This document shows positions 22,955 through 44,527 of a stretch of DNA of 64,000 nt, in pieces. The stretch's first letter is position 1; every line of letters begins with the position of its first letter. The notes below the pieces were generated by a model, which saw nothing but the letters and a program-made list of their open reading frames with translations, searched no databases and was not told where the DNA came from. Source of the DNA: Ensifer adhaerens. GTDB taxonomy: Bacteria; Pseudomonadota; Alphaproteobacteria; Rhizobiales; Rhizobiaceae. The translations under genes and the position numbers were made by a program. The stretch is from the NCBI RefSeq assembly GCF_002940685.1, contig NZ_PNFP01000023.1, forward strand, positions 1-64,000. Reading direction: 5' to 3'.

Positions 22955-22968
22955 CGTGGCAATCGTCC

Positions 22969-23890: not shown

Positions 23891-23901
23891 GGCAATTCTC
23901 C

Positions 23902-27440: not shown

Positions 27441-27442
27441 GC

Positions 27443-27742: not shown

Positions 27743-27744
27743 GA

Positions 27745-28089
27745 TCAGCCACCGCCGACAGACGAAATCATCTGATCAACGATCGCCGGCGCGCCGAAAA
27801 CGAGGCCAATGCCGATCACGACCGCGCCCGCAGTGAACCACGAGAGGCGGCCAGCGAAGGCGAGGAAGCCAAGACCGATGACGGCAATGATCGCCATCAG
27901 GCGGCCGAACGGGCCGGTGATGAAATCGACGATCATCTGCACGGCCGTTTGAAGCGGCGCAAAGGCACCGCCTCCTGCACCCTGCGCGAAGGCACTGCCG
28001 GCCCCTACCAATTGAATTGCGGCCACGAGACCGATTAGGGCTGCAAGCTTTACAGCCTGAGACTTCCCCGTTTGCGTTGCAACCTGCAT
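27745..28089 (-). CDS. virB2: VirB2 major pilin
   Basis: 114 residues from ATG 28089 with GGAGAGAAG upstream. Long signal peptide ending GSAFAQ; mature pilin of two hydrophobic helices (MIVDFITGPFGRLMAIIAVI and FTAGAVVIGIGLVFGAPAIV) around a short basic FAGRLSW loop. Size and topology match VirB2/TrbC-type pilins. Confidence 0.93.
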   Translation of the reverse strand: MQVATQTGKSQAVKLAALIGLVAAIQLVGAGSAFAQGAGGGAFAPLQTAVQMIVDFITGPFGRLMAIIAVIGLGFLAFAGRLSWFTAGAVVIGIGLVFGAPAIVDQMISSVGGG

Positions 28090-28100
28090 ACTTCTCTCCT

Positions 28101-29051: not shown

Positions 29052-29209
29052 CGTCTCCCGCCCAACTCGCGGTGTTGTGATTGAAAGGAAAACTGTTTAT
29101 GTTAGTGCATGCATGACATCGATTTGCTTCAGCGTTACACTTTTTCTGGGCGCACTTAAACCCCCTTTCGCGCGGATAAGATTGAAGCAATATGGCTAAG
29201 GGCTAGAAA
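29052..29209. promoter_or_regulatory. Divergent promoter region of virB and nuclease-fold operons
   Basis: The 158-base gap between the divergent virB1 and the SNase-like operon must hold both promoters. It is relatively AT-rich near 29085-29110 (AACTGTTTATGTTAGTGCAT). I cannot assign boxes with confidence, and no VirG-box-like repeat is obvious. Confidence 0.45.
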
Positions 29210-29818
29210 ATGAAACGGATCATCATCGCCGGCCTCGTAAGTTGCGTAGTGGCAGCGCCCGCTTTGTCCGTCACGGACATCGACAAGAACTACATCAAGT
29301 CACTGGCAGCACCGGGAAAGACCGTGCTGGTGATCGAGTATTATGACGGGAGCGGCAACGTCGCTGACCGCAAGGGTTATTCAACGACAGGCGGTTTCAA
29401 GGCGGTCTCGCCGACCGATTTCCGCGTAGACGACAAGACGACGCTACACCTCTACGGGCTCGAGCCCTGCAAAGGGGACATGGTCAATCGCAGCGACGAC
29501 TTCTCCGGGACCTGTGCCGACTTTGCGCAGCGGCAGCTTCAAATCATGCTGCAAACCCCCAAGGTCGTCTTTTGCCGGGCCTTCGTGAGCGAGGAAGGTG
29601 CGCCTTTCCAGAACGCGACCTGCTACGGCTATTACAATTACCCCGGCAGTCTCGATTCCGTCGACATGTTTGAAGAGCAGCTTCTTTCACTAGGCGCCCT
29701 TCGCCTCGCGAAAAAGCCGGACGGAACGCTAGTTCGCCCAGATCTCGCCGAGGCCCAGGAGATTGGACAAAAGGGCTCGTTCGGAATGTGGGCCGATCCG
29801 AGGGTTAAGGGTCAATGA
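29210..29818 (+). CDS. Secreted staphylococcal-nuclease-fold protein 1
   Basis: 202 residues. Signal peptide ending VAAPALS. The body follows a thermonuclease (SNase) fold: TTLHLYGLEPCKGD, a conserved QRQLQIML helix, VFCRAFVSEEG strand and the C-terminal EAQEIGQKGSFGMWADPRVK typical of the family end (A...A+..+.G+W). Catalytic Arg/Asp/Glu residues are not clearly all present. The start of the next gene overlaps its stop (ATGA). Location suggests a periplasmic or secreted role in conjugation (inference). Confidence 0.65.
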   Translation: MKRIIIAGLVSCVVAAPALSVTDIDKNYIKSLAAPGKTVLVIEYYDGSGNVADRKGYSTTGGFKAVSPTDFRVDDKTTLHLYGLEPCKGDMVNRSDDFSGTCADFAQRQLQIMLQTPKVVFCRAFVSEEGAPFQNATCYGYYNYPGSLDSVDMFEEQLLSLGALRLAKKPDGTLVRPDLAEAQEIGQKGSFGMWADPRVKGQ

Positions 29819-30351
29819 GTAGGGCTCTTGTCCTTCTATGGACTCTGTTGCCATCAGCCGCTGTAGCGGCGCCGGTTGGATACTTTGATCTAGTGCCCGG
29901 CGTCACTTTGGAAACCGGCGATACCTGGATTTCGGAGGACAGGCGCTTCCGGCTCTATGGCGTGCAGTCGTGCTTGCGCGGCACTTCTTACACGGACAGC
30001 CACGGTCAGAAACGCGATTGCGGCGAGGCGTCCCTCGCCGTGCTCGCGGCTTATATCAAGGACACAAAGCCCGTTTGCGCACCCGTGGCGAAGAAGGACG
30101 ATACTGCTTACGTCGTCTGCTACTCCACCGTCGGAAATCAGAGGCTCGACCTTGCGACCGTCCTGATCACCAGCGGATACGCCTTCGCAGCGCTCAACGG
30201 TGAAGGCTTGCCCTATCACGTCCCCTACGCTGTAGCCGAGCAACGAGCGCGCGAACAGCGGGCAGGCCTCTGGCAGTTCGAAGACGTGCAGCACCCGTCC
30301 ATTCTCCTGAGCCGTGAGGTGAACGCGCGAAACAAGAAGGCAAGCCAATGA
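29815..30351 (+). CDS. Secreted staphylococcal-nuclease-fold protein 2
   Basis: 178 residues with signal peptide ending AAVAAP. SNase pattern: FRLYGVQSCLRGTSYTDSHG, DCGEASLAVLAAYIKDTKPV, YVVCYSTVGNQRLDLATVLI (the GR.DLA..LV..G strand) then AVAEQRAREQRAGLWQF. Four Cys residues may form disulfides. Overlaps both neighbours by ATGA, so it is tightly coupled. Confidence 0.7.
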   Translation: MSRALVLLWTLLPSAAVAAPVGYFDLVPGVTLETGDTWISEDRRFRLYGVQSCLRGTSYTDSHGQKRDCGEASLAVLAAYIKDTKPVCAPVAKKDDTAYVVCYSTVGNQRLDLATVLITSGYAFAALNGEGLPYHVPYAVAEQRAREQRAGLWQFEDVQHPSILLSREVNARNKKASQ

Positions 30352-31049
30352 AGCGATACCTGTCTGCAGTCGCGGTTCTTTCTGCGCTCGTCCAATCCGC
30401 TAAGGCTGCCGATCTCGTGAAGAATCCGGCCGCGACGATGCGACAGCAGCAGGATTGGGCCGATGCTCCAGTGTATCGGCACCCGGTCTACAAGGGACGG
30501 GTTGCGATCATGGATGGCCGAACCCTATGGTATCCCCAATATGCGCAGCGCGTTCGCCTCGTCGACATCGACGCGTGCGAGCTCCCGCAATGGGCTCTTG
30601 ATCCCAAATGGGTCGACCGCGAACGGCAGGAAGCACCGTCGCCGGTACCTTGCGGCCCACTTGCCAAAGCCTGGCTCAAGAGGACCGTAGGCGACAATCC
30701 TGTCGAATGCAGCGTCGAAGCCATCGGCAATGATGCAATTCCGCAGGCGCGTTGCACCTCAGGGGGGCGCGACATTGCAGTGGAGATGCTTCGCGTCGGC
30801 TGGGCGCGTGTGGCGTCACAGCATTCCTCCAGCAGCCAGTACCTAGCCTATCAGCGGTACGCGATGGCAGCCCGCTATGGCATGTGGGCCACTTATGTTC
30901 TCGACATGGACGAATGGCTACGCAAGGCGATAGACAAGACATTGGCGCGCCAGCCGATCGCTGATGCCAACCTCCTCGCCGAGCGTGAAAGCGAGATTTC
31001 ACCTCCCTTCATCGATGCCCGCAGGAAGCCAAAGAGGACAGACCGATAG
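30348..31049 (+). CDS. Secreted staphylococcal-nuclease-fold protein 3
   Basis: 233 residues with signal peptide ending SAKAAD. Contains VRLVDIDACELPQWALDPKW, CGPLAKAWLKRTVGD, then RDIAVEMLRVGWARV and the ending AYQRYAMAARYGMWATYV, the thermonuclease layout. The C-terminal 40 residues are a charged tail. Third tandem member of the fold. Confidence 0.68.
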   Translation: MKRYLSAVAVLSALVQSAKAADLVKNPAATMRQQQDWADAPVYRHPVYKGRVAIMDGRTLWYPQYAQRVRLVDIDACELPQWALDPKWVDRERQEAPSPVPCGPLAKAWLKRTVGDNPVECSVEAIGNDAIPQARCTSGGRDIAVEMLRVGWARVASQHSSSSQYLAYQRYAMAARYGMWATYVLDMDEWLRKAIDKTLARQPIADANLLAERESEISPPFIDARRKPKRTDR

Positions 31050-31460
31050 TTGCCCGACTTCGCTCGTATTGCGAATGCGTTCGCAACGGATCCGCTGGCG
31101 AGCCTGCTGCTCGCCATTCCGCTGTCGTTTGCGCTGATCGTCGTTTCGGAAAAAATCTGGTGGGTTCATGCACCGTTGGCTGCGGCGCTCCTGATCGTCT
31201 CTATCCTCTTTCTCGATCAACGTCATCTAGCGCTCGACTGCTTCCTGGTCGGTCTGTTCGCCTTTCCGCCGCTTTGCCGGGACATCCCCAATCAGCCGCT
31301 TCTCTTTCGGATCGGGATCTTCTGGTTCTCAGCCTTCGCGCTCATCGCAGCCGTCATCTACGCGGCCGGGGATCGGGTGCAACATGTCGCTCCGATCGAC
31401 AAGCTGTTCGTCGGTCGGGCCTCTCCAGCCGCAACCATCAATGAGGACCATCTGACATGA
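31050..31460 (+). CDS. Small membrane protein, hypothetical
   Basis: 136 residues from a TTG directly after the previous stop. Three or four hydrophobic segments (LASLLLAIPLSFALIVV, APLAAALLIVSILFL, ALDCFLVGLFAFPPL, FWFSAFALIAAVIYAAG). No family recognised; part of the same operon as the SNase-fold genes. Confidence 0.65.
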   Translation: MPDFARIANAFATDPLASLLLAIPLSFALIVVSEKIWWVHAPLAAALLIVSILFLDQRHLALDCFLVGLFAFPPLCRDIPNQPLLFRIGIFWFSAFALIAAVIYAAGDRVQHVAPIDKLFVGRASPAATINEDHLT

Positions 31461-32053
31461 AACGTCTGCTTTATGCCGCAGCCGGTCTTGCTGTGATCGC
31501 AATCGCCCCCACAGGGGCAAAGGCGCAAGACGCCGAGTGGGGCTGCCAGATTCTACTTTGTGCCGCATCCCAAAACCCGTCCTGGCATGGCGTCCCCTAT
31601 TGCGTTCCGCCGATGAAAAAACTGATCCGCGCGATGTCGAAGCCGGGGTTCGATTGGCCCATCTGCCACCAGGCTAAAGCCGGCGAACCGGGCCGCGAAG
31701 AGTTTGAGGAATGCCCTGCCGGCTCTCGACCCGCCTCGAGCAGCAGTGGAGATGACCGTGTCTTCAGGCGGGATGAAAATGACCAGTGCGTCCACATCGT
31801 GGACAGGTGCGAAGGCCGCGACGAGTACGACCGCCTCTATGGTGATGGAGAAGCCAACGACAAGAACCGTACCACCTTGGAGATCCTCCGCAGCGGCAGA
31901 AATGACGGCGATTTCGGCTATCGGGACGACAAATACAACGGCTGCAAGGTGAAGATCACATCTCCCCGGCCGCGGCGCTCGAATCCCTGGTATTTCGACA
32001 TTCCAAACGGCAATGGCGTCAAAGAGCGCTTCTGGTTCAACCTCAGAACCTAA
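31457..32053 (+). CDS. Secreted Cys-rich protein of conjugation-gene neighbourhoods
   Basis: 198 residues, start overlapping the previous stop (ATGA). Signal peptide ending TGAKAQ. The mature part begins DAEWGCQILLCAASQNPSWH then VPYCVPPMKKLIRAMSKPGF and DWPICHQA, a Cys-rich block that I recall from secreted proteins of rhizobial VirB-type conjugation clusters. The rest is a disordered charged tail. Function not known. Confidence 0.65.
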   Translation: MKRLLYAAAGLAVIAIAPTGAKAQDAEWGCQILLCAASQNPSWHGVPYCVPPMKKLIRAMSKPGFDWPICHQAKAGEPGREEFEECPAGSRPASSSSGDDRVFRRDENDQCVHIVDRCEGRDEYDRLYGDGEANDKNRTTLEILRSGRNDGDFGYRDDKYNGCKVKITSPRPRRSNPWYFDIPNGNGVKERFWFNLRT

Positions 32054-32065
32054 GTGAGAAAGCTG

Positions 32066-32482
32066 ATGAACCAGAACATCCTTGTAGCGATCGCCGCGAC
32101 CGTCGGCCTCGTGACCGGCGCTGGCGGCACGTATCTTGCAACTTTAGAGCCCAAGGTGGAGACTCAGGCCATTTCAAAGGCCGAATTGGTTGCGGCTATC
32201 TCCGCGGATCCGTCCCTCTGCCCAATCCCTAAAGTCGAGGCGCCGACGGAGGCCGAAGCAACAGCGGCCTACCGCAAAGCTCACGCGGCATCTCCCCTTG
32301 TTTGGGACAGAAACGATCGGCCGGACATATCTGTGGCGCTGGGGCAGTGCGACAAAACCGGCTCAGGCCCGGGCGTCGCCTGCATGACTTCAATCAAAAT
32401 GTCTCCTGAGGCGCGGCCCATTGATCGCATTGTCGGCTTCTCTAGATCGGCATCGGGCGAGTGGATCGCGACCATCAACTAG
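32066..32482 (+). CDS. Membrane-anchored protein, hypothetical
   Basis: 138 residues from ATG 32066; a GTG at 32054, directly after the previous stop, is an alternative start adding four residues. N-terminal hydrophobic anchor (ILVAIAATVGLVTGAGGTYL), then a small domain with two Cys (DPSLCPIP, GQCDKTG). Last gene of the envelope operon. No family recognised. Confidence 0.6.
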   Translation: MNQNILVAIAATVGLVTGAGGTYLATLEPKVETQAISKAELVAAISADPSLCPIPKVEAPTEAEATAAYRKAHAASPLVWDRNDRPDISVALGQCDKTGSGPGVACMTSIKMSPEARPIDRIVGFSRSASGEWIATIN

Positions 32483-33890: not shown

Positions 33891-34505
33891 ATGATACACA
33901 TCGTGACGCCACTGAATGCCGCCGAGCATAAGTCTTTGATAGAACAGATGTTCAGACTTCGGGCCAGACAATTCGCTAATCGGCGTAACTGGCGAGTTTC
34001 GGTAGAAGACGGGCGAGAGATCGACTATTTTGATACACTCGATCCAACGTACGTTCTAGTCAGCAACGACGCTGGTATCCTCGTCGCATCGCTGCGTGTG
34101 CTGCCGACAACCGGACCTCACATGCTTGCTGACGTTTTTCGCGACATAATGGCAGAATCGTCAGTAATCCGGCATCCGCTTATCTGGGAAAGCTCTCGCT
34201 TCTGCATCGACCCAGCGGTGGCGCGTAATTACGGTCCAGATGGCATCAACATGGTGACACGTGAAGTTCTTCACGGCCTCTTCTCGCTAGCGCGCGATTG
34301 CGGTGTTCAAAACGTCGTTTCCGTTTACGACTTGATGGTGGAGCGCATCCTGCGTCGCGCGGGATGCTTATTTGACAGAATTGGATCGGTTGTCGAGTAC
34401 GATGACGGCTTATTGACGACCGCAGGTCTGTTTGAGGTAAGCGACGAGGTTATTGACCGGCTGACATCGATGCGGAAGCCCGAACGCCTGTTGGAAGGGG
34501 TTTGA
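33891..34505 (+). CDS. LuxI-family acyl-homoserine-lactone synthase
   Basis: 204 residues. All key LuxI positions are present at canonical numbering: Arg24, Phe28, Trp34, Asp45, Asp48, Arg69, Glu100 and Arg103 (WRVSVEDGREIDYFDT, ASLRVLPTTGPHML, WESSRFCID). Makes an N-acyl-homoserine lactone from SAM and acyl-ACP; the acyl chain cannot be read from sequence. The GntR gene starts one base after its stop, and the aminotransferase follows, so it heads a three-gene operon of the phosphonate cluster. The cognate LuxR is at 36706. Confidence 0.95.
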   Translation: MIHIVTPLNAAEHKSLIEQMFRLRARQFANRRNWRVSVEDGREIDYFDTLDPTYVLVSNDAGILVASLRVLPTTGPHMLADVFRDIMAESSVIRHPLIWESSRFCIDPAVARNYGPDGINMVTREVLHGLFSLARDCGVQNVVSVYDLMVERILRRAGCLFDRIGSVVEYDDGLLTTAGLFEVSDEVIDRLTSMRKPERLLEGV

Positions 34506-34506
34506 T

Positions 34507-35223
34507 ATGGCCGTCTCGGCGTTGACTCCCACAACCCCAGAGCCTTTCGGTCCACTGGATGGAGCATTGTTCGATGTACCGGTGCACTCCAGTAAAACTT
34601 CCACGGCCTATGACCGGCTCACGCGGATGCTGATGGCCGGTGAGCCTAGGGGAGAAGAAAGGTTGATCCCCAGCGACCTCAGCCGACACCTCAATGTTGG
34701 CCTTACTCCATTGCGCGAGGCACTCATTCGCCTGGCGATCGAAGGCGTCATCGAACAGGTTCCCGGATGCGGCTTCTTTGCGACCCTGCCAAACTACGGC
34801 GAGCTCAGCGACCTAAACACGATCCTAGATCTGCTATTCGGCAAAATAGTAGACGACCGGAACATTTCCCTGTGCAACATGGTGGTGCATGAGGCCCATG
34901 CGAGCCCGAACCGCCGCTTTCAATGGTTCTACAACGGCCTCGCGTCTATATCGGATAGCGCCCATGTTATGCGGCTGTCTCATTGCTACACCTTAAAAAT
35001 AGGTCGTCTGCTTGCGTTGCAGGACTCCCACGCCTTCGACGCCTCCGAATTGATGGTAGAAATTGATCGCTGCATTTCCGCCTTCAGCACTGAGGATCGG
35101 CTAGAGGCATCGGAGGCTTTCGTCAGCCATCGCAGGACAATGCGAGCGATCTTACCCCACCTTCTACTCACAGCGCAGACCAGAAGCCGCCGGCATCGAG
35201 AGTCGCTGCAAGTGAACGGCTAG
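34507..35223 (+). CDS. GntR-family transcription regulator
   Basis: 238 residues. Winged helix near residues 35-95: TAYDRLTRMLMAGEPRGEER then LIPSDLSRHLNVGLTPLREA and LIRLAIEGVIEQVPGCGFFA, the classic GntR signature. The C-terminal ~130 residues are helical and FCD-like in length (LNTILDLLFGKIVDD), but clear metal-binding His residues are not evident. Placed between luxI and the aminotransferase, probably a local regulator that could sense a cluster metabolite (inference). Confidence 0.85.
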   Translation: MAVSALTPTTPEPFGPLDGALFDVPVHSSKTSTAYDRLTRMLMAGEPRGEERLIPSDLSRHLNVGLTPLREALIRLAIEGVIEQVPGCGFFATLPNYGELSDLNTILDLLFGKIVDDRNISLCNMVVHEAHASPNRRFQWFYNGLASISDSAHVMRLSHCYTLKIGRLLALQDSHAFDASELMVEIDRCISAFSTEDRLEASEAFVSHRRTMRAILPHLLLTAQTRSRRHRESLQVNG

Positions 35224-35247
35224 GCTCAAATAAGAGTAATCACAGCT

Positions 35248-36498
35248 ATGAACCTGTTTGCCCATCCGCACCATCCTATTCAGAACCGCGAAAGCCAAGT
35301 TAGATCGCTTTGCCGGCAGTTTGCCGAGACAGTTGTTCGGGCCACAGGAGACAGTTTCTCTACCCAAGAGGGGAACGAGTATGTCGACCTCACCTCTGGA
35401 GCTGGCGCGTTGAACTACGGCTACAACCATCCCGCGCTGAAAGCAGCGCTTGTTCGCTTCCTTGATCGGGACGGGATGCCCAACGCGCTCGATATGTACA
35501 CCGATGCAAAGGCCAGCTTCTTTTCGGCATTTGAACACCACATCCTCATACCCCGCAGAATGGATTACCGGCTCCAGTGCGCCGGTCCGACCGGTGCCAA
35601 CTCCGTGGAGGCGGCTATCAAGCTTGCCCGTCTCGCGACTGGGCGAAAGACCATTGTGGCGTTTACCGGGGGGTATCATGGGCTATCACTGGGCGCTCTG
35701 GCGGCCACTGCTTATCGAGGCACTCGAGAAGCGGCGACCGTATCATTGAGTGACGTCGTGCACATGCCCTATGAAGGCTATTTCGGACCGGACACACCCG
35801 GGATCCCGTTTCTGCGAGCCATGTTTGACGATCGCGCCAGTGGACAGCAGAAGCCCGCAGCCTTCCTCGTAGAGGTCGTCCAGGGAAAAGGCGGCATGCG
35901 AAACGGCTCGGCTGACTGGTTAAAGAGCCTGGCACAGCTTGCCGCAGATCTCGGGGCGCTCATGATCTGTGACGAGATATTTGCCGGGTGCGGTCGTACA
36001 GGTCGCTATTTTGCCTTCGAGCCGTTTGATTTTGTGCCCGACATCATTTGCCTGTCAAAGTCCTTGAGTGGCTTCGGTTTGCCAATGTCCATGCTAATGA
36101 TCCGTCCTGAGGTTGATGTCTGGCAACCGGGTCAACATGCCGGAACTTTTCGTGGCAACGGTCATGCCTTTGTTACAGGCGCTGTCGCCGCAGAACTTTG
36201 GTCAGATCCGGCTTTTGTCGAGAACGTTGCCAACTTGGAAAAGTTGCTCGAGGAGCGGCTTGACAATCGTGAACCGGGGTTCGGACGGCCAACAGGTCGC
36301 GGCCTAATGCGAGGCCTAGCTTTTGAATCCACAGATCGCGCAGCCTCCATTGTGGCTGGCCTTCGTGCGAATGCGATTTTTACGACAACGTGCGGGCCGG
36401 AGGAGCAGGTGGTGAAGCTTTTACCGCCGCTTACGATGGCGCCAGATCGCCTCACAGACGTGATCAACCGGTTGGATAGGGTCTGCGCGAGGCGCTGA
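35248..36498 (+). CDS. Class III aminotransferase, diaminobutyrate/EctB type
   Basis: 416 residues. PLP-enzyme motifs match 2,4-diaminobutyrate aminotransferases: CAGPTGANSVEAAIKLARLA (112-131), GGYHGLSLGALAATA, ICDEIFAGCGRTGRYFAFE with Asp242, and ICLSKSLSGFGLPMS with the Schiff-base Lys271. The EctB family aminates aspartate semialdehyde. Beside PEP mutase and phosphonopyruvate decarboxylase, two substrates are plausible: aspartate semialdehyde (giving diaminobutyrate) or phosphonoacetaldehyde (giving 2-aminoethylphosphonate). No ectA or ectC is present, so ectoine synthesis is unlikely. Third gene of the luxI operon. Confidence 0.9.
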   Translation: MNLFAHPHHPIQNRESQVRSLCRQFAETVVRATGDSFSTQEGNEYVDLTSGAGALNYGYNHPALKAALVRFLDRDGMPNALDMYTDAKASFFSAFEHHILIPRRMDYRLQCAGPTGANSVEAAIKLARLATGRKTIVAFTGGYHGLSLGALAATAYRGTREAATVSLSDVVHMPYEGYFGPDTPGIPFLRAMFDDRASGQQKPAAFLVEVVQGKGGMRNGSADWLKSLAQLAADLGALMICDEIFAGCGRTGRYFAFEPFDFVPDIICLSKSLSGFGLPMSMLMIRPEVDVWQPGQHAGTFRGNGHAFVTGAVAAELWSDPAFVENVANLEKLLEERLDNREPGFGRPTGRGLMRGLAFESTDRAASIVAGLRANAIFTTTCGPEEQVVKLLPPLTMAPDRLTDVINRLDRVCARR

Positions 36499-36705
36499 CG
36501 CCGCCGCGGATATCCAGACGACGTGCGGCGTTCGAGGTTCTTCAGCACCAGATAGTCGAGCAGGAGAGGCGTGCGGATTCGACTGCACGTTGAGTTGTCA
36601 CAAAACTGAGAACATTCTTTTGCAGTATCGGCAAATTGATTGCTTGCCACATCCCTCCTGCTCAAGGGTTAAGGGATTAAGGTACTTCCGAAGAGAGGAA
36701 AGCCG

Positions 36706-37443
36706 ATGAAAACGCTGTTGCTCTCCGAGCGTTTCGAAGAATTGATGGTGGAGCTACCAGATAAAGGTCTGCCGGATATTCTTGCACTGGCAATCGGAGA
36801 GTTTGGCATCAACCGCTTTGCCTATTTTCCGACTGCCAATGCTGCACAGGATCCGAAGCCTGAAATCCTCACTAACTATTGCGATCCCTGGGTGACACGT
36901 TATCGGACGCAGAACTACCAACTGATCGACCCAGCGGTGTTGGCAGGCTCTTCCAGTTTCATGAACGTCGATTGGAGCGAATTCCAGAATACGCCGGAGG
37001 TTTCTAAGTTCTTTGGCGAAGCTATGGAGTTTGGGGTTTCTCCGATCGGTTTGACTATTCCCATTCGCGATCCCGAAAATCGACGAGCTCTATTTTCAGT
37101 CAATGCAGATATCAATGCGCGTGAATGGCCGGCATTTAAGAAGAGTTTTCAGGCAGACCTAACGTACTTAAGTTTCTTGTTCCACAAGCATTTGGTTGCG
37201 CGGCGCGCCGACCTTGCCCCAGTCAAAGCACAGTTGTCACGCCGTGAACGCCAGGTTCTGTCGTGGGCGGCGCTAGGAAAGACAACGTGGGAAACGGCTT
37301 GCATCCTCAAGCTATCGCAGCGAACAGTCGAGTTCTATCTGCGTAACTGCTGTGCACAGCTCGGAGTTGCGAACAAAACCCAAGCGGTCGCCGTGGCGCT
37401 TTGTCATGGCTTGGTAACGCTACTTCCCGTGCACTCGATTTGA
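36706..37443 (+). CDS. LuxR-family quorum-sensing regulator
   Basis: 245 residues, ATG with GAGAGGAAA upstream. N-terminal autoinducer-binding domain with NYCDPWVTRYRTQNYQLIDP (the W...Y...Y...DP pocket signature) and NVDWSEF; C-terminal LuxR HTH LSRRERQVLSWAALGKTTWE, then ILKLSQRTVEFYLRNC and NKTQAVAVA. Expected to bind the signal of the LuxI at 33891 and control the cluster's promoters. Single transcript between the luxI operon and the convergent methyltransferase. Confidence 0.95.
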   Translation: MKTLLLSERFEELMVELPDKGLPDILALAIGEFGINRFAYFPTANAAQDPKPEILTNYCDPWVTRYRTQNYQLIDPAVLAGSSSFMNVDWSEFQNTPEVSKFFGEAMEFGVSPIGLTIPIRDPENRRALFSVNADINAREWPAFKKSFQADLTYLSFLFHKHLVARRADLAPVKAQLSRRERQVLSWAALGKTTWETACILKLSQRTVEFYLRNCCAQLGVANKTQAVAVALCHGLVTLLPVHSI

Positions 37444-37483
37444 GATTTTCAATACTGATAACGAAAAACTTGTAACAATCTGC

Positions 37484-38221
37484 TCAGAAGCGCGCCACCA
37501 CATAGATTTCCTCGCCGTTGAAATCCGACGGAGCAAATTCCTGGTTGTCGGCCACGTCAAGAATATCTGCGCCATGTTGCCTTAGACGATGGCAAAGTTC
37601 TTCCGGAAATAGCATACGGTGAACCGACCTATCCGTTGCAACTATGTCGTCTCCACGACGCCAGTTGCGCCGCCGGATGGATTGTTGGGACTTTATATCC
37701 ACGCAAAAACTGGTCTCGCCTACAAGGCGATCGCCGGCGGCGTCAACTACTTCAATGTTGGAAGGAGTGGACATCCTCGATGACATTAGGAGAGCTCCGT
37801 AGTTCAGTGCGCCTACGAGGACGATCGCCCCGTGTGCGGCGTGTTTGCGGATGACTTCAAACCCGTATTCGAGATCTCGCGGATGAACGAGATGGGAGAG
37901 AACGTTGCCGAGGACCAGTAGCCCTTCGAAACGGATGTCCAAGTTGAGGTCTTGCATTGGACATATATGAAACGATGCCTGGGCACGCGCGCGCGCCAAG
38001 TTGATCATAGCGGAGCTTGGGTCAACGCCTGTGCAAGCAATACCAAGCGAGGATAAGTATTGAATTTCCCGACCGGTTCCGCATCCCAGGTCAAGAACAT
38101 TCCGAGGCAACCGGCCAAGGTAACGTCGGAATGTCGCTTCGCACATCCGCCCACGCCGGTGCGGCGGGTCGGGATAGACAGCTTCGTAGAGATCAGGATT
38201 GACGTAGAGGAAATTGGTCAT
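37484..38221 (-). CDS. SAM-dependent methyltransferase
   Basis: 245 residues. Class I fold with motif I VLDLGCGTGREIQYLSSLG, GVDPSSAMINLARAR motif II and LVLGNVLSHL. Its start overlaps the opine-dehydrogenase stop (ATGA), so the two enzymes are coupled. Probably N-, O- or C-methylates the product of the pathway; the substrate is not readable from sequence. Confidence 0.88.
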   Translation of the reverse strand: MTNFLYVNPDLYEAVYPDPPHRRGRMCEATFRRYLGRLPRNVLDLGCGTGREIQYLSSLGIACTGVDPSSAMINLARARAQASFHICPMQDLNLDIRFEGLLVLGNVLSHLVHPRDLEYGFEVIRKHAAHGAIVLVGALNYGALLMSSRMSTPSNIEVVDAAGDRLVGETSFCVDIKSQQSIRRRNWRRGDDIVATDRSVHRMLFPEELCHRLRQHGADILDVADNQEFAPSDFNGEEIYVVARF

Positions 38222-39390
38222 ACGAAACGGGTTGTCTCCTCATTCCGCAGCTGTGCGATTGGCCTCGAAGGCGGCCAATGCTCCGGCAGATATTCGAGTG
38301 CCGAAGCCTCCGGTCCTCCCAGGAACTCCACCGTCCATGCGTAGATCTCAGTCATATAAGGCATCTCGACGCCCAACCGTCGACCTAGTTCGAGCAAGAA
38401 GGCCATACCGTAGTAAAGATCCTCGCGAACTCCAGGATGATCCATCTTAAAGAGGTAGCCACCACCTTGTGCTTCGATCATTGGAATACGGGACTGGAAG
38501 GCCGAGCAGGTTCGAAAGGTCGATAGCATTGTCCGCGGATCAGCGATCAGGCTCCGGTATTGGTCGACGACTTTACCGTGCAGTGTTCCAGCACCTTTCA
38601 GCTCCAGTCCAAGAGCGCCTTCGATGGCGTGAATGAGGCGCTGCTGTTCCGCATCGCAACGCTCAAGGAAATATGCGGCCAGTTCTGTTAGGTCGGCCCA
38701 CCAGCGAACCTGTTCGGTAAACGGCTTGCCGTCCCATTGCGAATACGGCCCCATGCGAGCGTACAACACCGAAGGATGGATGAAACCCAGTGGACTCAGT
38801 GTCATTTCCAGGAAATGGCTGAGCATCTCAGTGGGCTGCGGGAACAGATGTGCGACTAAAGCAGCGCCTTCTTCCCGCAATCCTAGCGGAACATCCTGGC
38901 CAAAACCAAGATAAAGCTTGTCCTTGAACCCGCCGAGTATAACGCTTCGGCCTGTATCCATTTTTGGACTCGTCGCGGGGACGCCTCTGAGCGCCCACAC
39001 GACAATGTTGGGATCACGGCCGATTTCCTTTCCAACGAGCCAATCGAATCCCCCGCACCCGGGAATGGCGCCGATGAAGACGGGGCGGTCGCGACGGATC
39101 ACTGAAGCTGCACGTCGGACCGCCTCTGGTCTGCCGTTAGCAGTTTGGGTGAAGATGATGACGTCGGCCTTACCGGCCACTTCAGTTATATCGTCCGTTA
39201 CGATCGCGGGACGGCCGCTGCATAGTGCTTGCCCGTCGGAAACCATTGTGATGCCCTCTTGCGGCATGTTCCTGCGGATTTCTGCTGCCCGGCGTGTGTG
39301 CCAAAGAATCTGGACATCTTCCCTTTGCGAAAGCAAAGCCACCAACAGATGACCCATTCGGCCACCACCAGAAATCAAGATCGTGGTCAT
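38218..39390 (-). CDS. Opine (octopine/nopaline-type) dehydrogenase-like enzyme
   Basis: 390 residues, ATG with AAGGAGA upstream. N-terminal Rossmann domain ILISGGGRMGHLLVALLSQR and a C-terminal all-helical domain with SPLGFIHPSVLYARMGPYSQ, where the His-Pro corresponds to the catalytic His of octopine/nopaline dehydrogenases (NPxxHP). Such enzymes reductively join the amino group of an amino acid to an alpha-keto acid with NAD(P)H. In this setting the partner could be phosphonopyruvate or an aminoethylphosphonate/diaminobutyrate amine, giving an opine-type phosphonate (inference). First gene of a two-gene operon with the methyltransferase. Confidence 0.82.
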   Translation of the reverse strand: MTTILISGGGRMGHLLVALLSQREDVQILWHTRRAAEIRRNMPQEGITMVSDGQALCSGRPAIVTDDITEVAGKADVIIFTQTANGRPEAVRRAASVIRRDRPVFIGAIPGCGGFDWLVGKEIGRDPNIVVWALRGVPATSPKMDTGRSVILGGFKDKLYLGFGQDVPLGLREEGAALVAHLFPQPTEMLSHFLEMTLSPLGFIHPSVLYARMGPYSQWDGKPFTEQVRWWADLTELAAYFLERCDAEQQRLIHAIEGALGLELKGAGTLHGKVVDQYRSLIADPRTMLSTFRTCSAFQSRIPMIEAQGGGYLFKMDHPGVREDLYYGMAFLLELGRRLGVEMPYMTEIYAWTVEFLGGPEASALEYLPEHWPPSRPIAQLRNEETTRFV

Positions 39391-39572
39391 GACATCTCCT
39401 TTTTGTTTGCTTCACAATAATTGTATCGAGATGCCGGTCAATTATATAAAATAAATATGTGAAATATGTACTTTATATAGTCATATATTCAATTTTATAA
39501 TAATAATATTACTTGAGTATCTAAATATTGATGATAACGGTATTTTAAGAGTACGAGGGAAGGATCTGCAAG
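39391..39572. promoter_or_regulatory. AT-rich divergent promoter region of the phosphonate operons
   Basis: 182 bases between opine dehydrogenase (minus) and the discoidin-led operon (plus), markedly AT-rich compared with the rest of the window (for example TTATATAGTCATATATTCAA near 39475). It must carry both promoters. No clear lux box was found by eye. Confidence 0.5.
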
Positions 39573-40112
39573 ATGTACATACCTCCGCTAGAGCTTGTTG
39601 GATCGGAGCCGGTATTAACGCCGCGCGAGTCAGAGCATTTTGCGACCGTGAGCACGAGACTAAGGCCTGTCTCAGGATGCAGAGTAATCGCATCGTCGGG
39701 ATGTCATCGCTACGGATATTGGAACGAGCAATACCTGTTCGATGGTCGGGCTGATACCGGCTGGTGCACACCGAGCCGCACGCGGTCGCAAAGCGAATTC
39801 CTGGAGATAAGCACTGGATGCCAGACTCCGATCCAACGGATCAGGATGCTGTCGCGCGCCATCAATCCGGAAGCCGGTTTCCCCAAGCGGATGCAAGTAC
39901 GGTCGGCAAAAGCCGAGGGTGAATGGCAGGCGCCAGTCACGCTGCAATCGTCGCAGCTAACCTCTACGTGCTGGCACGAATGGAGCCTGCCTGGGCTCCA
40001 TGCGCCCTACCTCCGCCTCGATTTCTTTGATGTCGCGCGCAGGCAGGAAGGAAAATACTTCCTGCAGTTCATGGCGCTCGAGCTTTTGACGGAGGTTATC
40101 GATGTCGATTGA
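39573..40112 (+). CDS. Discoidin (F5/8 type C)-like domain protein
   Basis: 179 residues, ATG with GGGAAGGA upstream, no signal peptide seen. The body is a galactose-binding-type beta-sandwich: YLFDGRADTGWCTPSRTRSQ, then EFLEISTGCQTPIQRIRMLS and WSLPGLHAPYLRLDFFDV. Such domains bind glycans or lipids. Start of the phosphonate core operon; the cupin gene overlaps its end by 11 bases. Why a biosynthesis operon carries it is unclear. Confidence 0.7.
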   Translation: MYIPPLELVGSEPVLTPRESEHFATVSTRLRPVSGCRVIASSGCHRYGYWNEQYLFDGRADTGWCTPSRTRSQSEFLEISTGCQTPIQRIRMLSRAINPEAGFPKRMQVRSAKAEGEWQAPVTLQSSQLTSTCWHEWSLPGLHAPYLRLDFFDVARRQEGKYFLQFMALELLTEVIDVD

Positions 40113-40545
40113 TATAGCGCGGCTCAATCCGACCGCTGGAGCGATCTTTTTTGCCGAACAGGCTTCGAAATTCGGCGCCTGGGGAAGCGATAGCCTAGCA
40201 TGCAATTTTTGGTATCTGAATCCCGGGCAGCAGTTGGTTCCAAGCAAAGCTGAGACAACGGATACCATTTTGGTCGTGCTTGATGGCGATGTCGCGCTCG
40301 AGACGTTCGAGGGTTCTGAAATTCCCCTCGACAAAGTCTACCGACCGGAGGCTGCGCGTGTGGTGAGTCCAGCGCCCAAGAGCGAGGGATACACCATTTT
40401 GCGATCGGAGCTGGGCCGGGCGGGCGATGTCTTTGCTGTCCCTATGGGGTTGTTCTTTGCCATAGTGAACGGTTCCGACACGCCTGCCACCGTCTTGTCG
40501 GTCAGCGCTCCTGTCCGTGATCGGGCGCAATATACAAGCCGCTAG
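40102..40545 (+). CDS. Cupin-fold protein lacking the metal site
   Basis: 147 residues with GGAGG before the ATG. Cupin pattern: LNPGQQLVPSKAETTDTILV then VLDGDV, and GDVFAVPMGLFFAIVNGSDT for motif 2. The usual metal ligands are missing: motif 1 has no His-x-His and motif 2 has Phe where the His is expected (PxGxxF). It may therefore bind a ligand non-catalytically, or act as an accessory or isomerase-like protein. Confidence 0.75.
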   Translation: MSIDIARLNPTAGAIFFAEQASKFGAWGSDSLACNFWYLNPGQQLVPSKAETTDTILVVLDGDVALETFEGSEIPLDKVYRPEAARVVSPAPKSEGYTILRSELGRAGDVFAVPMGLFFAIVNGSDTPATVLSVSAPVRDRAQYTSR

Positions 40546-40560
40546 AGTGCACGGTTTCCC

Positions 40561-41259
40561 ATGGAAAAAGCCGCCATCTTCTTTGACCTCTACCATACTC
40601 TGGTGGAAGAACAGCCGGATAATCCGTTCTATTCACGGATCATTGCCTCACTCGGACTCGAAGCCTCGAGCTTCCTGCCGGCGTACAAATCCTGTGGTGA
40701 CGCTACTATGCGTGGCGTGCTTGACGGAATGGGAGGGCGTATCGCAGAAGCGTGCCGCCTCTCGAATCAAATGCGTAGTCGTGAGCAGATCGCGGCAAGT
40801 GTCGCGAGCTGTTTGCCGATCTTTCACGCGGCTGTAATCCCATATCCGGACCTCGCTAAATCGCTCGACCGCATCGAGGCCGCCGGCGTGCCGATGGCGA
40901 TCATCAGTAACGCGTCCCAGTATTCTGTTGCCGTTATTGAAGAACTCGGATTGTTCGAACGGATGGATGCGGTGGTGCTGTCATTCGAGGAGCGTATCCT
41001 CAAACCTGAACCTTCCATCTATCGTACCGCGTTGAAACGAGTCGGCGCATGCCCAAGTTCGTCGGTCTTCGTAGGCGATGGTGGAAATGACGAGTTAGCG
41101 GGCGCGCGGCATTGCGGCCTGCATACGATACTCATCGATCGACGGCTAACTCACACAGAGCGTGCAAGGGAGTACGCTGATCTCGTCGTTCCTTCTCTTT
41201 CTGCGGCTTCGGAAGCTGCCCTTTCACTTATAGAAACGAGTTGCAGTTCCGCAACCTGA
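40561..41259 (+). CDS. HAD-superfamily hydrolase
   Basis: 232 residues. HAD motifs: IFFDLYHTLVE (motif I, nucleophile Asp; the second acid position is Tyr), IISNASQY (II), RILKPEPSIYRTAL (III Lys) and VFVGDGGNDELAGAR (IV). The cap is helical, as in haloacid-dehalogenase-like phosphatases. It lacks the DxAGT signature of phosphonoacetaldehyde hydrolase, so a phosphatase acting on a pathway intermediate is more likely than phosphonate breakdown. Sits directly before pepM. Confidence 0.85.
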   Translation: MEKAAIFFDLYHTLVEEQPDNPFYSRIIASLGLEASSFLPAYKSCGDATMRGVLDGMGGRIAEACRLSNQMRSREQIAASVASCLPIFHAAVIPYPDLAKSLDRIEAAGVPMAIISNASQYSVAVIEELGLFERMDAVVLSFEERILKPEPSIYRTALKRVGACPSSSVFVGDGGNDELAGARHCGLHTILIDRRLTHTERAREYADLVVPSLSAASEAALSLIETSCSSAT

Positions 41260-41290
41260 ACCACCACTTCCCACCCAGGAGATTTCCAGC

Positions 41291-42190
41291 ATGTTGGATC
41301 AGCGTATCCTCACAAAGGCTGCCGCATTGCGACAGCTTCTCACCAGTCCCAAACTCGAATTTTTCATGGAAGCCCATAATGGGATGAGCGCTCGTATCGT
41401 TGAGCAAGTTGGGTTTCGGGCGATCTGGGCCTCCGGTCTGACGATTTCTTCGGCGTTTGGGGTGCGCGACCGCAATGAGGCGTCATGGACCCAAGTGCTC
41501 GAAGTGGTGAATTTTATGAGTGACCGAACAGAGATTCCAATTCTTCTGGACGGGGACACCGGATACGGCGATTTCAATAACTTCGCGCGAATTGTGCGGA
41601 AACTGGATCAGATTGAAGTTGCGGGTGTCTGCATTGAAGATAAGATTTTCCCGAAACAGAATTCGTTTCTCGGTCAAAGCCAAGAGCTAACTTCCATTGA
41701 AGATTTCGTTTCCAAGATTAGGGCAGGAAAAGAGAGTCAACGCGATCCGAATTTTTCGATCGTCGCTCGGACAGAGACGCTGATCGCGGGCCGCTCCATG
41801 CAAGAAGCTCTCGACCGTGCGGCTGCGTATCATGAGGCAGGTGCTGATGCCATCCTTATCCATTCCAAAAAGGCCGATAGCACCGAGATCGAGGAGTTTT
41901 GCCGGCAATGGAACAACCTTTGCCCCGTCGTTCTAGTGCCGACAAAGTATTATACGACGCCGGCTGACAGGTTCCGGGCGCTAAATGTATCTGCGGTGAT
42001 CTGGGCTAATCATACCATGCGGGCAGCCATTACCGCCATGGAAGCGGTATGCCGAAGGGTCCACGCTGAAGAATCCCTGTCGGGCGTGGAAAGTGAAATC
42101 GCGAGCCTGGCTTGCCTTTTCGAACTTACTGGAGAAGCTGACTACGCCGCGTTCGCAGAACGCTTTTCTGCGTCGGGGTCTTTGGCATGA
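41291..42190 (+). CDS. pepM: Phosphoenolpyruvate phosphomutase
   Basis: 299 residues, ATG with AGGAG upstream. The diagnostic PepM motif EDKIFPKQNSF is intact at residues 116-126, with LDGDTGYGDFNNFARIV at 87-103 and FSIVARTETLIAG. Converts PEP to phosphonopyruvate, the entry reaction of nearly all known phosphonate biosynthesis; the EDK...NS motif separates it from isocitrate-lyase relatives. Overlaps the decarboxylase start (ATGA), which pulls the unfavourable equilibrium forward. Confidence 0.96.
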   Translation: MLDQRILTKAAALRQLLTSPKLEFFMEAHNGMSARIVEQVGFRAIWASGLTISSAFGVRDRNEASWTQVLEVVNFMSDRTEIPILLDGDTGYGDFNNFARIVRKLDQIEVAGVCIEDKIFPKQNSFLGQSQELTSIEDFVSKIRAGKESQRDPNFSIVARTETLIAGRSMQEALDRAAAYHEAGADAILIHSKKADSTEIEEFCRQWNNLCPVVLVPTKYYTTPADRFRALNVSAVIWANHTMRAAITAMEAVCRRVHAEESLSGVESEIASLACLFELTGEADYAAFAERFSASGSLA

Positions 42191-43329
42191 TTAGCGCTGA
42201 AACTTGGGGCGAACATCTGACGGCGGCCGGCTATGACTTCGCATCGGGTGTGCCTTGCTCGAGCCTCTCGCCGCTACAAAATGTGTTCGTCATGGGTGAG
42301 CGCGTGGAATATATCGCCGCGACCAATGAGGGGCAGGCCATAGCAATCGCCGCAGGCGCCCGCATAGGAGGGCGAAAGTCGGTCGTCCTTATGCAGAATT
42401 CCGGGCTCGGGAATGCGATAAACCCGATCACTTCGCTGCTGGCGATTTTCGAGATCCCGATCCTGCTTATTGTTTCTTGGCGCGGTCGACCTGGATGGCT
42501 GGACGAGCCCCAGCACGAGGTGATGGGACGGATAACGCCCAACTTGCTCGAAGTTCTGGATGTGCCATACCGGATTCTGTCGGAGGATCCGTCTACTGCC
42601 TCGGCGGATCTCATAGATGTGCTCGACATGATAGAAACGACGGGCCGCACTCATGCGATTATCGTTCCCGACAAGACCTTCGCCCCCTTTCCCTGCGCCA
42701 CAACGCTAGTGCCTCGGCGCGAACCTGGCGTCCATTCCCATGAAGGTAAATCAACTGGCCTGCTGCCGTCTCGCACTGATGCACTCGAACGACTCAATGC
42801 GGCCTGCGGCGACGATTTGATGGTCGCCACGACGGGTAAGACGGCGCGTGAACTCTTCGCCCTTGGCGACAAGGCTCGCAATCTTTACGTTGTCGGATCA
42901 ATGGGGCTCGCGTCCTCCCTCGCACTTGGTTTGAGCTTGGTCACTGACGAAAGAGTCATCGCAATAGACGGGGACGGAGCGGCATTGATGCATCTTGGCG
43001 CAATGTCGACGGTTGCAACCTATGGAAGGTCAAACTTTGTGCATGTGATCCTCGACAACGGTTGCTACGATTCAACGGGTGCCCAGCCTTCGACCGCAGC
43101 CAACACGCCCTTTGCGGAAATTGCAGCTCTGAGCGGGTATCGAAAGAGTTGGACAACCGACAACATCGATAATTTCTCGGAGATCCTGGCGAGAACTCGC
43201 CGAGAGGCGGGGCCGTTGATGATAAGGCTCAAAATCGCGGCGGGTTCGCCAAGGGACCTGCCCAGGCCCGACAGAGCGCCAAGGGATGTTCTCAAGCGGC
43301 TGCAGGAGACCTTGGCTCATGCCAGCTAG
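42187..43329 (+). CDS. ppd: Phosphonopyruvate decarboxylase
   Basis: 380 residues. ThDP-dependent fold split as in Ppd enzymes: N-terminal pyrimidine-binding part with FASGVPCSSLSPLQNVF and ATNEGQAIAIAAGA (cofactor Glu), C-terminal part with AIDGDGAALMHLGAMSTVAT and VILDNGCYDSTGAQPS (metal/pyrophosphate site). Yields phosphonoacetaldehyde. Coupled to pepM by a 4-base overlap and overlaps the MFS gene by 11 bases. Confidence 0.95.
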   Translation: MISAETWGEHLTAAGYDFASGVPCSSLSPLQNVFVMGERVEYIAATNEGQAIAIAAGARIGGRKSVVLMQNSGLGNAINPITSLLAIFEIPILLIVSWRGRPGWLDEPQHEVMGRITPNLLEVLDVPYRILSEDPSTASADLIDVLDMIETTGRTHAIIVPDKTFAPFPCATTLVPRREPGVHSHEGKSTGLLPSRTDALERLNAACGDDLMVATTGKTARELFALGDKARNLYVVGSMGLASSLALGLSLVTDERVIAIDGDGAALMHLGAMSTVATYGRSNFVHVILDNGCYDSTGAQPSTAANTPFAEIAALSGYRKSWTTDNIDNFSEILARTRREAGPLMIRLKIAAGSPRDLPRPDRAPRDVLKRLQETLAHAS

Positions 43330-44527
43330 TTCGGGCAGCGATTCTACTCAACGCCCATCCGACGCACTTCCAATGGCCATGCCCGCGGTAATACTTGCGC
43401 TGACCCAAATCACTGGCTGGGGCGCGGTTGGCGTCCTGCCCGTGCTCGCTAAGACGATCTCTACGGAATTCGGGAGCTCTTTATCAGCCGTCTTTCTGGG
43501 AACCTCGGCGATGTTCGTCGCAATGGGGATTGCCGCACCTTGGACCGGTCGTGCATTTATTCGGTTTGGAACACGTCAAGTTATGGCGGCAGGAGCAGCA
43601 CTGATCGGGCTGGGTCTCTGCTTGCTCGCCCTTTCACCGAACCTTTCACTCTTTTGGGGTTCATGGGCACTGACTGGTGTGGCTGGCGCAATGTTTCTGA
43701 CTACCTCTGCATACGCATATATCGCAGAGTATGCCGAGGATCGCGCGCGGAGTCTGATTGGTACCTTGATGTTGGTGACAGGCCTCGCAAGCAGTGTCTT
43801 CTGGCCAATAACCACGTTTCTAGACAATGTCATCGGCTGGCGTGGCGTTGTCCTTGTCTACGCTGGCATCATGTCCTTGATTGTCTGCCCAGTCGTCTGG
43901 GTAGGCCTTCCCGCAACAAGCAGCCCGGCTGACAAGGCGGCGCGTCAAAATGGTCAGCGAAAGGGGCCAGCCTTCGTCCTGTTAGTGGCAGCTATCGCCC
44001 TAAACACCTTCGTGACCTTCGGTGTTGAGGCGATGGGCATTCAACTCTTGCAGGCAATGGGTATGGACTTGACGGGGGCTGTCGCAGTCGCTTCGCTCCT
44101 TGGAGTGTTCAAGGTCGGTGGACGTGTGGTCGACCTTCTGGGCGGGCAGAGATGGGACGGGCTCTCGACTGCGATTGTGTCGGGGTCTATGATCCCGATC
44201 GGGCTTGGTGCGATCTGGATCGGCGGTGCAGGCTACCTTTCGGTCGGCGGTTACCTCCTGCTGTTTGGGGTCGGAAGTGGCGCCTTCGCCGTGGCGCGGG
44301 CCACCATGCCGCTCGTTTTCTTTCAAAAGGCAGACTATACGGCAGCGATGGCTACTATCGCCTTGCCGATGAACTTGATCACCGCGATGGCACCGCCAAT
44401 TCTCGCGGCGTTGATGGCAGGTATCGGCGCTCAGGGCGTTTTCGCGGCTCTTGGCGTACTTAGCATCTCGGCTTTTCTCATTCTACTGCAGCTGAATCGC
44501 ATGCGACGAAGCATGGCCAACGACTGA
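43319..44527 (+). CDS. MFS transporter, probable exporter of the pathway product
   Basis: 402 residues from ATG 43319, inside the end of the decarboxylase gene. Twelve hydrophobic segments are expected (for example MPAVILALTQITGWGAVGVL, SALFLGTSA-like AVFLGTSAMFVAMGIAAPW, MVATYGV-free regions and MFLTTSAYAYIAEYAEDRAR). MFS proteins end many phosphonate clusters as exporters or self-resistance pumps; direction here is inferred from context. Last gene of the core operon. Confidence 0.88.
   Translation: MPASSGSDSTQRPSDALPMAMPAVILALTQITGWGAVGVLPVLAKTISTEFGSSLSAVFLGTSAMFVAMGIAAPWTGRAFIRFGTRQVMAAGAALIGLGLCLLALSPNLSLFWGSWALTGVAGAMFLTTSAYAYIAEYAEDRARSLIGTLMLVTGLASSVFWPITTFLDNVIGWRGVVLVYAGIMSLIVCPVVWVGLPATSSPADKAARQNGQRKGPAFVLLVAAIALNTFVTFGVEAMGIQLLQAMGMDLTGAVAVASLLGVFKVGGRVVDLLGGQRWDGLSTAIVSGSMIPIGLGAIWIGGAGYLSVGGYLLLFGVGSGAFAVARATMPLVFFQKADYTAAMATIALPMNLITAMAPPILAALMAGIGAQGVFAALGVLSISAFLILLQLNRMRRSMAND

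What the first reader, a model, noticed from the sequence alone, without database searches (positions are those of the whole stretch)
33891..44527. Quorum-sensing-linked phosphonate biosynthesis cluster with opine-type chemistry
PEP mutase with the intact EDK..NS motif and phosphonopyruvate decarboxylase sit in one operon with an MFS exporter, and the 10.6-kb block also has luxI, luxR, a GntR regulator, a diaminobutyrate-type aminotransferase, an opine-dehydrogenase-like enzyme, a methyltransferase, a HAD hydrolase, a cupin and a discoidin-domain protein. I know of no characterised phosphonate pathway with this gene set. Expected steps (inference): PEP to phosphonopyruvate to phosphonoacetaldehyde, amination, opine-type condensation, methylation, export at high cell density.
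Basis: partly seen in the sequence, partly recalled or inferred. Interest (0 to 1): 0.92.

Follow-up and report, generated by a model that had tools for sequence, protein, structure and literature searches.

The report
Quorum-linked plasmid phosphonate gene cluster
A rhizobial plasmid carries an intact set of genes that should make and export a small carbon-phosphorus compound, placed beside its own cell-density sensing genes, in a combination not seen as a whole in the phosphonate clusters compared here; the compound itself is unknown.

Summary
All 12 genes are open and in the named families; PepM (EDKX5NS) and Ppd pass equivalog cut-offs. The cluster is cargo on a VirB-type conjugative plasmid contig of 92,153 bases. 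Its PepM lies outside a clade of 13 Ppd-less rhizobial PepMs. Most close relatives (49 of 56) have PepM frames of 450 codons or more, and the 4 scanned are nucleotidyltransferase fusions. The window PepM stands alone and no such domain lies in the cluster, so the product is probably a soluble exported phosphonate. An opine-dehydrogenase homologue was seen in one other phosphonate cluster, on Rhizobium sp. 007 plasmid unnamed3, with the same transfer backbone, but in 8 of 10 ODH regions opened it sits in IucA/IucC siderophore clusters. "Opine-type condensation" is plausible, not shown. HAD, discoidin and cupin recur without PepM in Afipia and Streptomyces; the HAD has Tyr/Phe at D+2 in 6 of 6 sequences. 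LuxI is not TraI-type, but regulation is inferred; QS control of a phosphonate is already reported (PMC11546328). Verdict: new variant of a known kind, product unknown.

The parts
33891..34505 (+). LuxI-type AHL synthase (not TraI-type)
   Evidence: PF00765 144.5 bits; NCBIfam TraI models about 140 bits against cut-offs 250 and 292; nearest plasmid relative 57.5%; one of 3 luxI genes of the genome
34507..35223 (+). GntR-family regulator, starts 1 base after luxI
   Evidence: PF00392, HTH only; weak, mostly HTH similarity to GntR genes just upstream of aepX in L149, L163, L166 and 2 kb off in L150
35248..36498 (+). class III aminotransferase, EctB-like but below the EctB equivalog cut-off; candidate phosphonoacetaldehyde aminase or diaminobutyrate synthase
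   Evidence: next match in the genome 30%
36706..37443 (+). LuxR-type AHL receptor/regulator
   Evidence: PF03472 + PF00196
37484..38221 (-). class I SAM methyltransferase
   Evidence: PF13649; 6 solved relatives at E 1e-6 or better, 4 of them a sugar N,N-dimethyltransferase
38218..39390 (-). octopine/nopaline dehydrogenase-family enzyme (ODH)
   Evidence: PF02317 58 bits; octopine dehydrogenase 3c7a E 1.3e-20; GGGRMG, His and Glu-Asp positions kept
39391..39572 (.). divergent intergenic region, 26.9% G+C
   Evidence: promoter-like sites both ways, consensus matches only
39573..40112 (+). discoidin (F5/8 type C) protein with an SSGCHRYxxWNEQxLFDGxxxTGW block
   Evidence: 41 invariant columns in 5 sequences
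40102..40545 (+). cupin without invariant His or Glu
   Evidence: alignment of 5
40561..41259 (+). HAD-fold protein with DLYHT in motif I (Tyr at D+2)
   Evidence: Tyr/Phe there in 6 of 6 sequences aligned
41291..42190 (+). PEP mutase (PepM), EDKIFPKQNS, standalone 299 aa
   Evidence: TIGR02320 380.2/319.55; Mytilus-type PEP mutase 1m1b E 3.9e-104 (species name recalled)
42187..43329 (+). phosphonopyruvate decarboxylase (Ppd)
   Evidence: TIGR03297 379.5/312.5
43286..44527 (+). MFS transporter, probable exporter; the listed ATG overlaps Ppd by 44 bases, so a later start is possible
   Evidence: PF07690 93.2 bits; ArsK model 152.4 against cut-off 400
11640..32482 (.). plasmid transfer block (relaxase, VirB/VirD4) bordering the cargo; context, not part of the pathway

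Best explanation
This is a plasmid-borne cluster for a soluble, exported phosphonate. Shown at the level of family: PepM turns PEP into phosphonopyruvate and Ppd drives it on to phosphonoacetaldehyde. Inferred: the EctB-like class III aminotransferase makes 2-aminoethylphosphonate (or supplies diaminobutyrate); ODH couples an amine with an alpha-keto acid (or cleaves such a conjugate); the methyltransferase N- or O-methylates; the HAD (not of phosphatase type), discoidin and cupin proteins act together in one further tailoring step; MFS exports. Because no nucleotidyltransferase or CDP-alcohol transferase is present, the product is probably not a lipid or glycan head group. Local LuxI/LuxR and GntR set the expression, luxI being packed with gntR and the aminotransferase gene.
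For: PepM and Ppd pass equivalog cut-offs and overlap by 4 bases. PepM lies outside the starred clade of 13 Ppd-less rhizobial PepMs, in the part of the tree that holds the Ppd-associated ones, without a supported sister. Of 56 genome-contig loci with a PepM of 50% identity or more and a closed frame, 49 have frames of 450 codons or more; the 4 such proteins scanned are PepM-nucleotidyltransferase fusions. None of the 12 window proteins has a nucleotidyltransferase domain. ODH, a methyltransferase and an MFS gene lie with PepM on Rhizobium sp. 007 plasmid unnamed3, which shares the transfer backbone (86% coverage, 85.1% identity). The aminotransferase is the only EctB-like gene found in the genome. 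LuxI fails the TraI cut-offs; its nearest relative and a 38.6% LuxR relative sit side by side on an Agrobacterium plasmid.
Against: No substrate or product evidence. ODH's commonest setting among those opened is siderophore clusters (8 of 10). In the Rhizobium 007 cluster an IS6 transposase gene lies between the PepM part and the ODH part, and its methyltransferase is not detectably related to the window's. A standalone PepM is not in itself unusual: 7 of the 56 loci and the rhizobial clade have one. HAD, discoidin and cupin occur without PepM, so their tie to phosphonates is by position only. luxI is common on plasmids of this order (218 records at E 1e-25, 160 of them conjugative), so its place here could be chance. 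No lux box stands out.
Confidence: 0.58

Rival explanations
1. Two neighbouring pieces of cargo, not one pathway: a luxI-gntR-AT3-luxR piece for something else, and a phosphonate piece from ODH-MT to MFS.
For: AT3 and luxI are in a different unit from PepM; luxI is common on such plasmids; no LuxI, LuxR or AT3 relative at 1e-8 in the 80 genome contigs PepM loci, flanks up to 10 kb but often cut by contig ends, nor at 1e-4 in 15 PepM-centred loci of 8-21 kb.
Against: Without AT3 the phosphonate piece holds no aminotransferase; the 12 genes are packed with gaps of at most 207 bases.
Confidence: 0.22
2. The ODH is not a condensing opine dehydrogenase but cleaves an amino-acid conjugate oxidatively, as SbnB does in staphyloferrin B supply (SbnA/SbnB roles recalled), so the product is not opine-like.
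For: In 8 of 10 ODH regions opened ODH directly follows a cysteine-synthase homologue, with IucA/IucC genes nearby.
Against: The window has no cysteine-synthase domain among its 12 proteins; the phosphonate cluster of Rhizobium 007 lists none beside its ODH. The window ODH is a long branch (its place in the tree is unsure).
Confidence: 0.25
3. An ordinary phosphonolipid or phosphonoglycan cluster with unrelated neighbours.
For: Close PepM relatives are of that kind, with CDP-alcohol transferases nearby in the two looked at (L031, L167).
Against: No nucleotidyltransferase, CDP-alcohol transferase or glycosyltransferase domain among the 12 proteins; a transporter gene overlaps Ppd.
Confidence: 0.07

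Closest known systems
Rhizobium sp. 007 plasmid unnamed3 aepX cluster (uncharacterised as far as seen)
   Same: PepM, ODH, SAM methyltransferase, MFS and aminotransferases within 13 kb (54589-67470); same conjugative backbone, cargo directly after the same transfer block
   Different: Cytidylyltransferase and CDP-alcohol transferase present; class I/II aminotransferases; an IS6 transposase gene inside; no Ppd, LuxI or HAD-discoidin-cupin match; PepM 51% identical
PepM-nucleotidyltransferase / Ppd / AEP aminotransferase clusters (Mycetohabitans, Rhodospirillales)
   Same: Nearest PepMs (57-63%) with a neighbouring Ppd
   Different: PepM fused to a nucleotidyltransferase in the 4 scanned; CDP-alcohol transferase; separate AEP aminotransferase in Mycetohabitans; no ODH, LuxI or AT3 match
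Afipia carboxidovorans pHCG3 discoidin-cupin-HAD locus and Streptomyces plasmid clusters
   Same: Same three-gene module with a methyltransferase gene nearby; in Afipia luxI and luxR pieces about 4-5 kb away
   Different: No PepM or Ppd match; the Afipia methyltransferase is annotated at about 115 codons; LuxI there is only 34% over 109 residues
Pectobacterium atrosepticum QS-regulated phosphonates (PMC11546328, passages read)
   Same: AHL quorum sensing needed for phosphonate production (fom1 40-fold lower and no 31P signal in the expI mutant)
   Different: Depends on the strain's general ExpI system; its gene set was not compared here
Octopine dehydrogenase (PDB 3c7a)
   Same: Same family, E 1.3e-20 over most of the protein
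   Different: Distant; substrate of the window enzyme unknown

Membership tests
Phosphonate biosynthesis via phosphonoacetaldehyde | PepM with EDKX5NS | tested here: met
   EDKIFPKQNS in frame; TIGR02320 380.2/319.55
Phosphonate biosynthesis via phosphonoacetaldehyde | Phosphonopyruvate decarboxylase next to PepM | tested here: met
   TIGR03297 379.5/312.5, 4-base overlap
Phosphonate biosynthesis via phosphonoacetaldehyde | C-P product made | not testable with these tools
   needs 31P NMR
Nucleotidyl-activated phosphonate (Pnt) pathway | PntC-type nucleotidyltransferase, fused or in the cluster | tested here: not met
   no such domain in the 12 proteins
Opine dehydrogenase (PF02317) | Octopine_DH domain above gathering score | tested here: met
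   58 against 30 bits
Opine dehydrogenase (PF02317) | dinucleotide motif and conserved His and Glu-Asp positions | tested here: met
   alignment of 20; their catalytic role is recalled
Opine dehydrogenase (PF02317) | reductive condensation of amine and keto acid | not testable with these tools
   needs an enzyme assay
EctB diaminobutyrate aminotransferase | TIGR02407 equivalog cut-off | tested here: not met
   456.9 against 552.2 bits; broad NF006733 met
TraI/TraR conjugation quorum sensing | TraI model cut-offs | tested here: not met
   about 140 against 250 and 292 bits
LuxI/LuxR quorum sensing | synthase and AHL-binding regulator domains | tested here: met
LuxI/LuxR quorum sensing | lux box at the target promoter | tested here: inconclusive
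   best palindrome 8 of 10 pairs at 39491 in A+T-rich DNA, 16-base arms at 39443-39479; no control matched for composition
HAD phosphatase | second Asp at D+2 of motif I | tested here: not met
   Tyr/Phe in 6 of 6 sequences; role of this residue recalled

The most novel reading that the evidence does not exclude
A phosphonate opine: ODH joins 2-aminoethylphosphonate or phosphonopyruvate to a keto or amino acid, giving a secondary-amine phosphonate that is methylated and exported at quorum, on conjugative rhizobial plasmids whose cargo slot is seen to have received ODH-bearing phosphonate clusters twice, with PepMs of different lineages. The HAD-discoidin-cupin trio would be a new tailoring unit built on a HAD that is not a phosphatase.
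Probability: 0.3. Interest if true: 0.8.

Novelty: new variant of a known kind. Interest (0 to 1): 0.6.

Why it matters
Phosphonates are a rich source of enzyme inhibitors. A compact cluster that lacks nucleotidyl activation, adds opine-dehydrogenase and HAD/discoidin/cupin proteins and carries its own quorum-sensing pair would give a new scaffold to isolate and a direct test of whether rhizobial plasmids trade in phosphonate 'opines'. PepM clusters turn out to be frequent on plasmids (107 plasmid records at E 1e-40, the largest named groups Rhizobium 22, Sinorhizobium 20, Bradyrhizobium 17, Agrobacterium 14). The one paper search on this point listed 4 papers; I saw listings only, except passages of PMC12871164 on other terms.

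Tried and rejected
TraI-type conjugation control: LuxI fails both TraI model cut-offs; the four nearest LuxI neighbourhoods opened are accessory ones or unannotated (H67 was opened for HAD). Plain EctB/ectoine gene: equivalog cut-off not met, no other EctB-like gene in the genome. Metallophore: ODH relatives sit in siderophore clusters, but the 12 window proteins include no TonB receptor or IucA/IucC domain. Rfam and tRNA scans of the window found nothing. Megablast of the block against plasmids: no match. Discoidin: 1 of 394 family genomes (own), 1 of 397 order genomes (own), 1 of 248 in the family of G1031 (probably Afipia carboxidovorans itself, judged by position), none among 56 pattern matches in viral contigs; the genome sets are samples. 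HAD: 0 of 7 genomes behind PepM loci and 1 of 246 in the genus of G779. ODH: own only of 16 in the genus; 9 of 282 in the family, own included. ODH in 15 PepM-centred loci: none; PepM in 9 ODH-centred loci: none. The 28 other PepM-search loci have flanks of about 1.5 kb, too short to show neighbours such as AT3. ODH tree: window and Rhizobium 007 ODH are both long branches, their joining is unresolved. PepM tree: 33 relatives that I chose, 18 of the 80 genome-contig loci and 15 of the 16 loci L143-L153 and L163-L167 (L153 left out). GntR: similarity is mostly the HTH, in 4 of 24 loci, not counted as orthology. Lux-box search inconclusive. Proteus ODH region had no annotation. Papers: passages only of PMC11546328, PMC12871164, PMC6697681, PMC12723261, PMC7858074; all others as search listings.
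Full report
Observation. Family assignments come from Pfam and NCBIfam. PepM has an exact EDKX5NS (EDKIFPKQNS), the motif that PMC12723261 uses as its definition (passage), and aligns over residues 8-284 with the solved PEP mutase 1m1b. PepM and Ppd share four bases; discoidin/cupin, Ppd/MFS and MT/ODH also overlap; the largest gap between the twelve genes is 207 bases. The ODH-MT pair and the discoidin-to-MFS unit diverge from a 182-base region of 26.9% G+C inside DNA of 52-58% per kilobase.

Where it lies. The window is part of a 92,153-base contig of a 7.5-Mb genome. Coordinates 11-32.5 kb are a relaxase/VirB transfer block matching plasmids mainly of Sinorhizobium and Rhizobium (131 records). 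The match ends near 32.4-32.5 kb both in S. fredii pSF83666d and in Rhizobium sp. 007 unnamed3, where other cargo follows. The cluster is therefore read as cargo of a conjugative plasmid. PepM (apart from two matches of 26% and 23%), ODH and the EctB-like aminotransferase are each single in the genome; luxI is one of three.

PepM lineage. A scan of genome contigs kept 80 loci with PepM relatives, best 63%. The twelve window proteins were compared with these 80 and with 29 loci (109 in all, own cluster included): outside the own cluster only PepM, Ppd and one GntR matched at 1e-8; the 29 have short flanks. In a tree of 34 PepMs (33 relatives that I chose), 13 PepMs of rhizobial plasmids or genomes without a Ppd match form a 100/100 clade that leaves the window out; the window lies in the rest, mostly Ppd-associated, with no supported sister. 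One other PepM of the same family (L144) is also outside that clade, with Ppd and a long frame. Of 56 genome-contig loci with 50% or more identity and a closed frame, 49 have a PepM frame of 450 codons or more and 7 do not; the four long ones scanned (L031, L083, L084 and the plasmid L167) are PepM-nucleotidyltransferase fusions. The window PepM has 299 codons and no nucleotidyltransferase domain occurs among the 12 proteins. PMC6697681 (title, start of abstract and passages) treats nucleotidyl activation as predominant and most phosphonate capacity as serving cell surfaces. Its absence here, with a transporter present, points to a soluble product. That last step is inference.

ODH. The enzyme is a PF02317 member, related to octopine dehydrogenase, with dinucleotide motif and conserved His and Glu-Asp kept in an alignment of 20. 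Ten ODH regions of 45 plasmid records were opened. Eight are siderophore-type: a cysteine-synthase homologue directly before ODH and an IucA/IucC gene in all eight, a Y4yA-type PLP enzyme annotated in seven, an MFS gene in seven. One is unannotated. One is a phosphonate cluster: Rhizobium sp. 007 unnamed3, with aepX about 8 kb from ODH, then SAM methyltransferase and MFS. An IS6 transposase gene lies between the aepX part and the ODH part there, though a CDP-alcohol transferase, usual in rhizobial aepX clusters, is on the ODH side. Between the 45 plasmid records with ODH and the 60 of 107 PepM records shown, two accessions are in both lists: Rhizobium 007 (same cluster) and S. fredii CCBAU 83666 (about 267 kb apart). 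ODH in a phosphonate cluster is thus rare but not unique, and the two cases have PepMs of different lineages.

HAD, discoidin, cupin. This trio recurs on Afipia carboxidovorans pHCG3 beside a short methyltransferase gene and about 4 kb from luxI, and in two Streptomyces plasmid clusters with a class III-type aminotransferase, ATP-grasp, Ldh-family oxidoreductase and methyltransferase, without PepM or Ppd matches. A further genome stretch (L122) has it too. HAD alone also matches an Agrobacterium salinitolerans plasmid cluster with acyl-carrier and condensation genes. Motif I is DL[YF]xT in 6 of 6 aligned (in A. salinitolerans it lies upstream of the annotated start), so the second Asp of phosphatases is missing; haloacid dehalogenases and phosphonatase are recalled to differ there as well, and the solved relatives include haloacid dehalogenases. 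The cupin keeps no invariant His or Glu in 5 sequences; the discoidin protein has 41 invariant columns in 5. I read the trio as one tailoring unit of unknown reaction.

Quorum sensing. LuxI and LuxR have their domains; LuxI is below the TraI cut-offs. LuxI (57.5%) and LuxR (38.6%) relatives stand side by side on an Agrobacterium sp. S7/73 plasmid, which suggests that the window pair is cognate although gntR and AT3 lie between. The lux-box search was inconclusive. luxI is common on plasmids of these bacteria, so the coupling is likely but unproven. QS control of phosphonate output has precedent in Pectobacterium atrosepticum (PMC11546328, passages).

Verdict. The gene set is real, coherent and, in what was searched, not found elsewhere as a whole; the chemistry after phosphonoacetaldehyde and the regulation are inferred. 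No paper with all of phosphonate, pepM and opine dehydrogenase was found, in a library of open-licence papers only.

Noticed in passing
L143 (NZ_CP064190.1 44000-90000): Rhizobium sp. 007 plasmid carries a phosphonate cluster with ODH, three class I/II aminotransferases, two methylaspartate ammonia-lyases, a cytidylyltransferase, an IS6 transposase gene and PhnF.
   Followed up: partly
L164, L165, L166: PepM clusters (aepX, class I/II aminotransferase, cytidylyltransferase, CDP-alcohol transferase) are frequent on rhizobial and agrobacterial plasmids, one on a Ti plasmid where ornithine-cyclodeaminase and cysteine-synthase genes follow.
   Followed up: partly
L114, L115, L122: Streptomyces-type clusters with HAD, discoidin, cupin and class III aminotransferase; L114 and L115 are also annotated with ATP-grasp, Ldh-family oxidoreductase, VOC, methyltransferase and LhgO. 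The protein upstream of HAD in L122 looked like a DUF849-type enzyme by eye only.
   Followed up: no
window 45407-47404: Right-handed beta-helix protein (PF13229) on the other strand next to the cluster; sugar ABC transporter and catabolism-like genes follow.
   Followed up: no
L113 3756-4450 and 8910-9254: The Afipia pHCG3 LuxR match lies in two pieces in different frames and the adjacent methyltransferase gene is short: the locus looks decayed.
   Followed up: no
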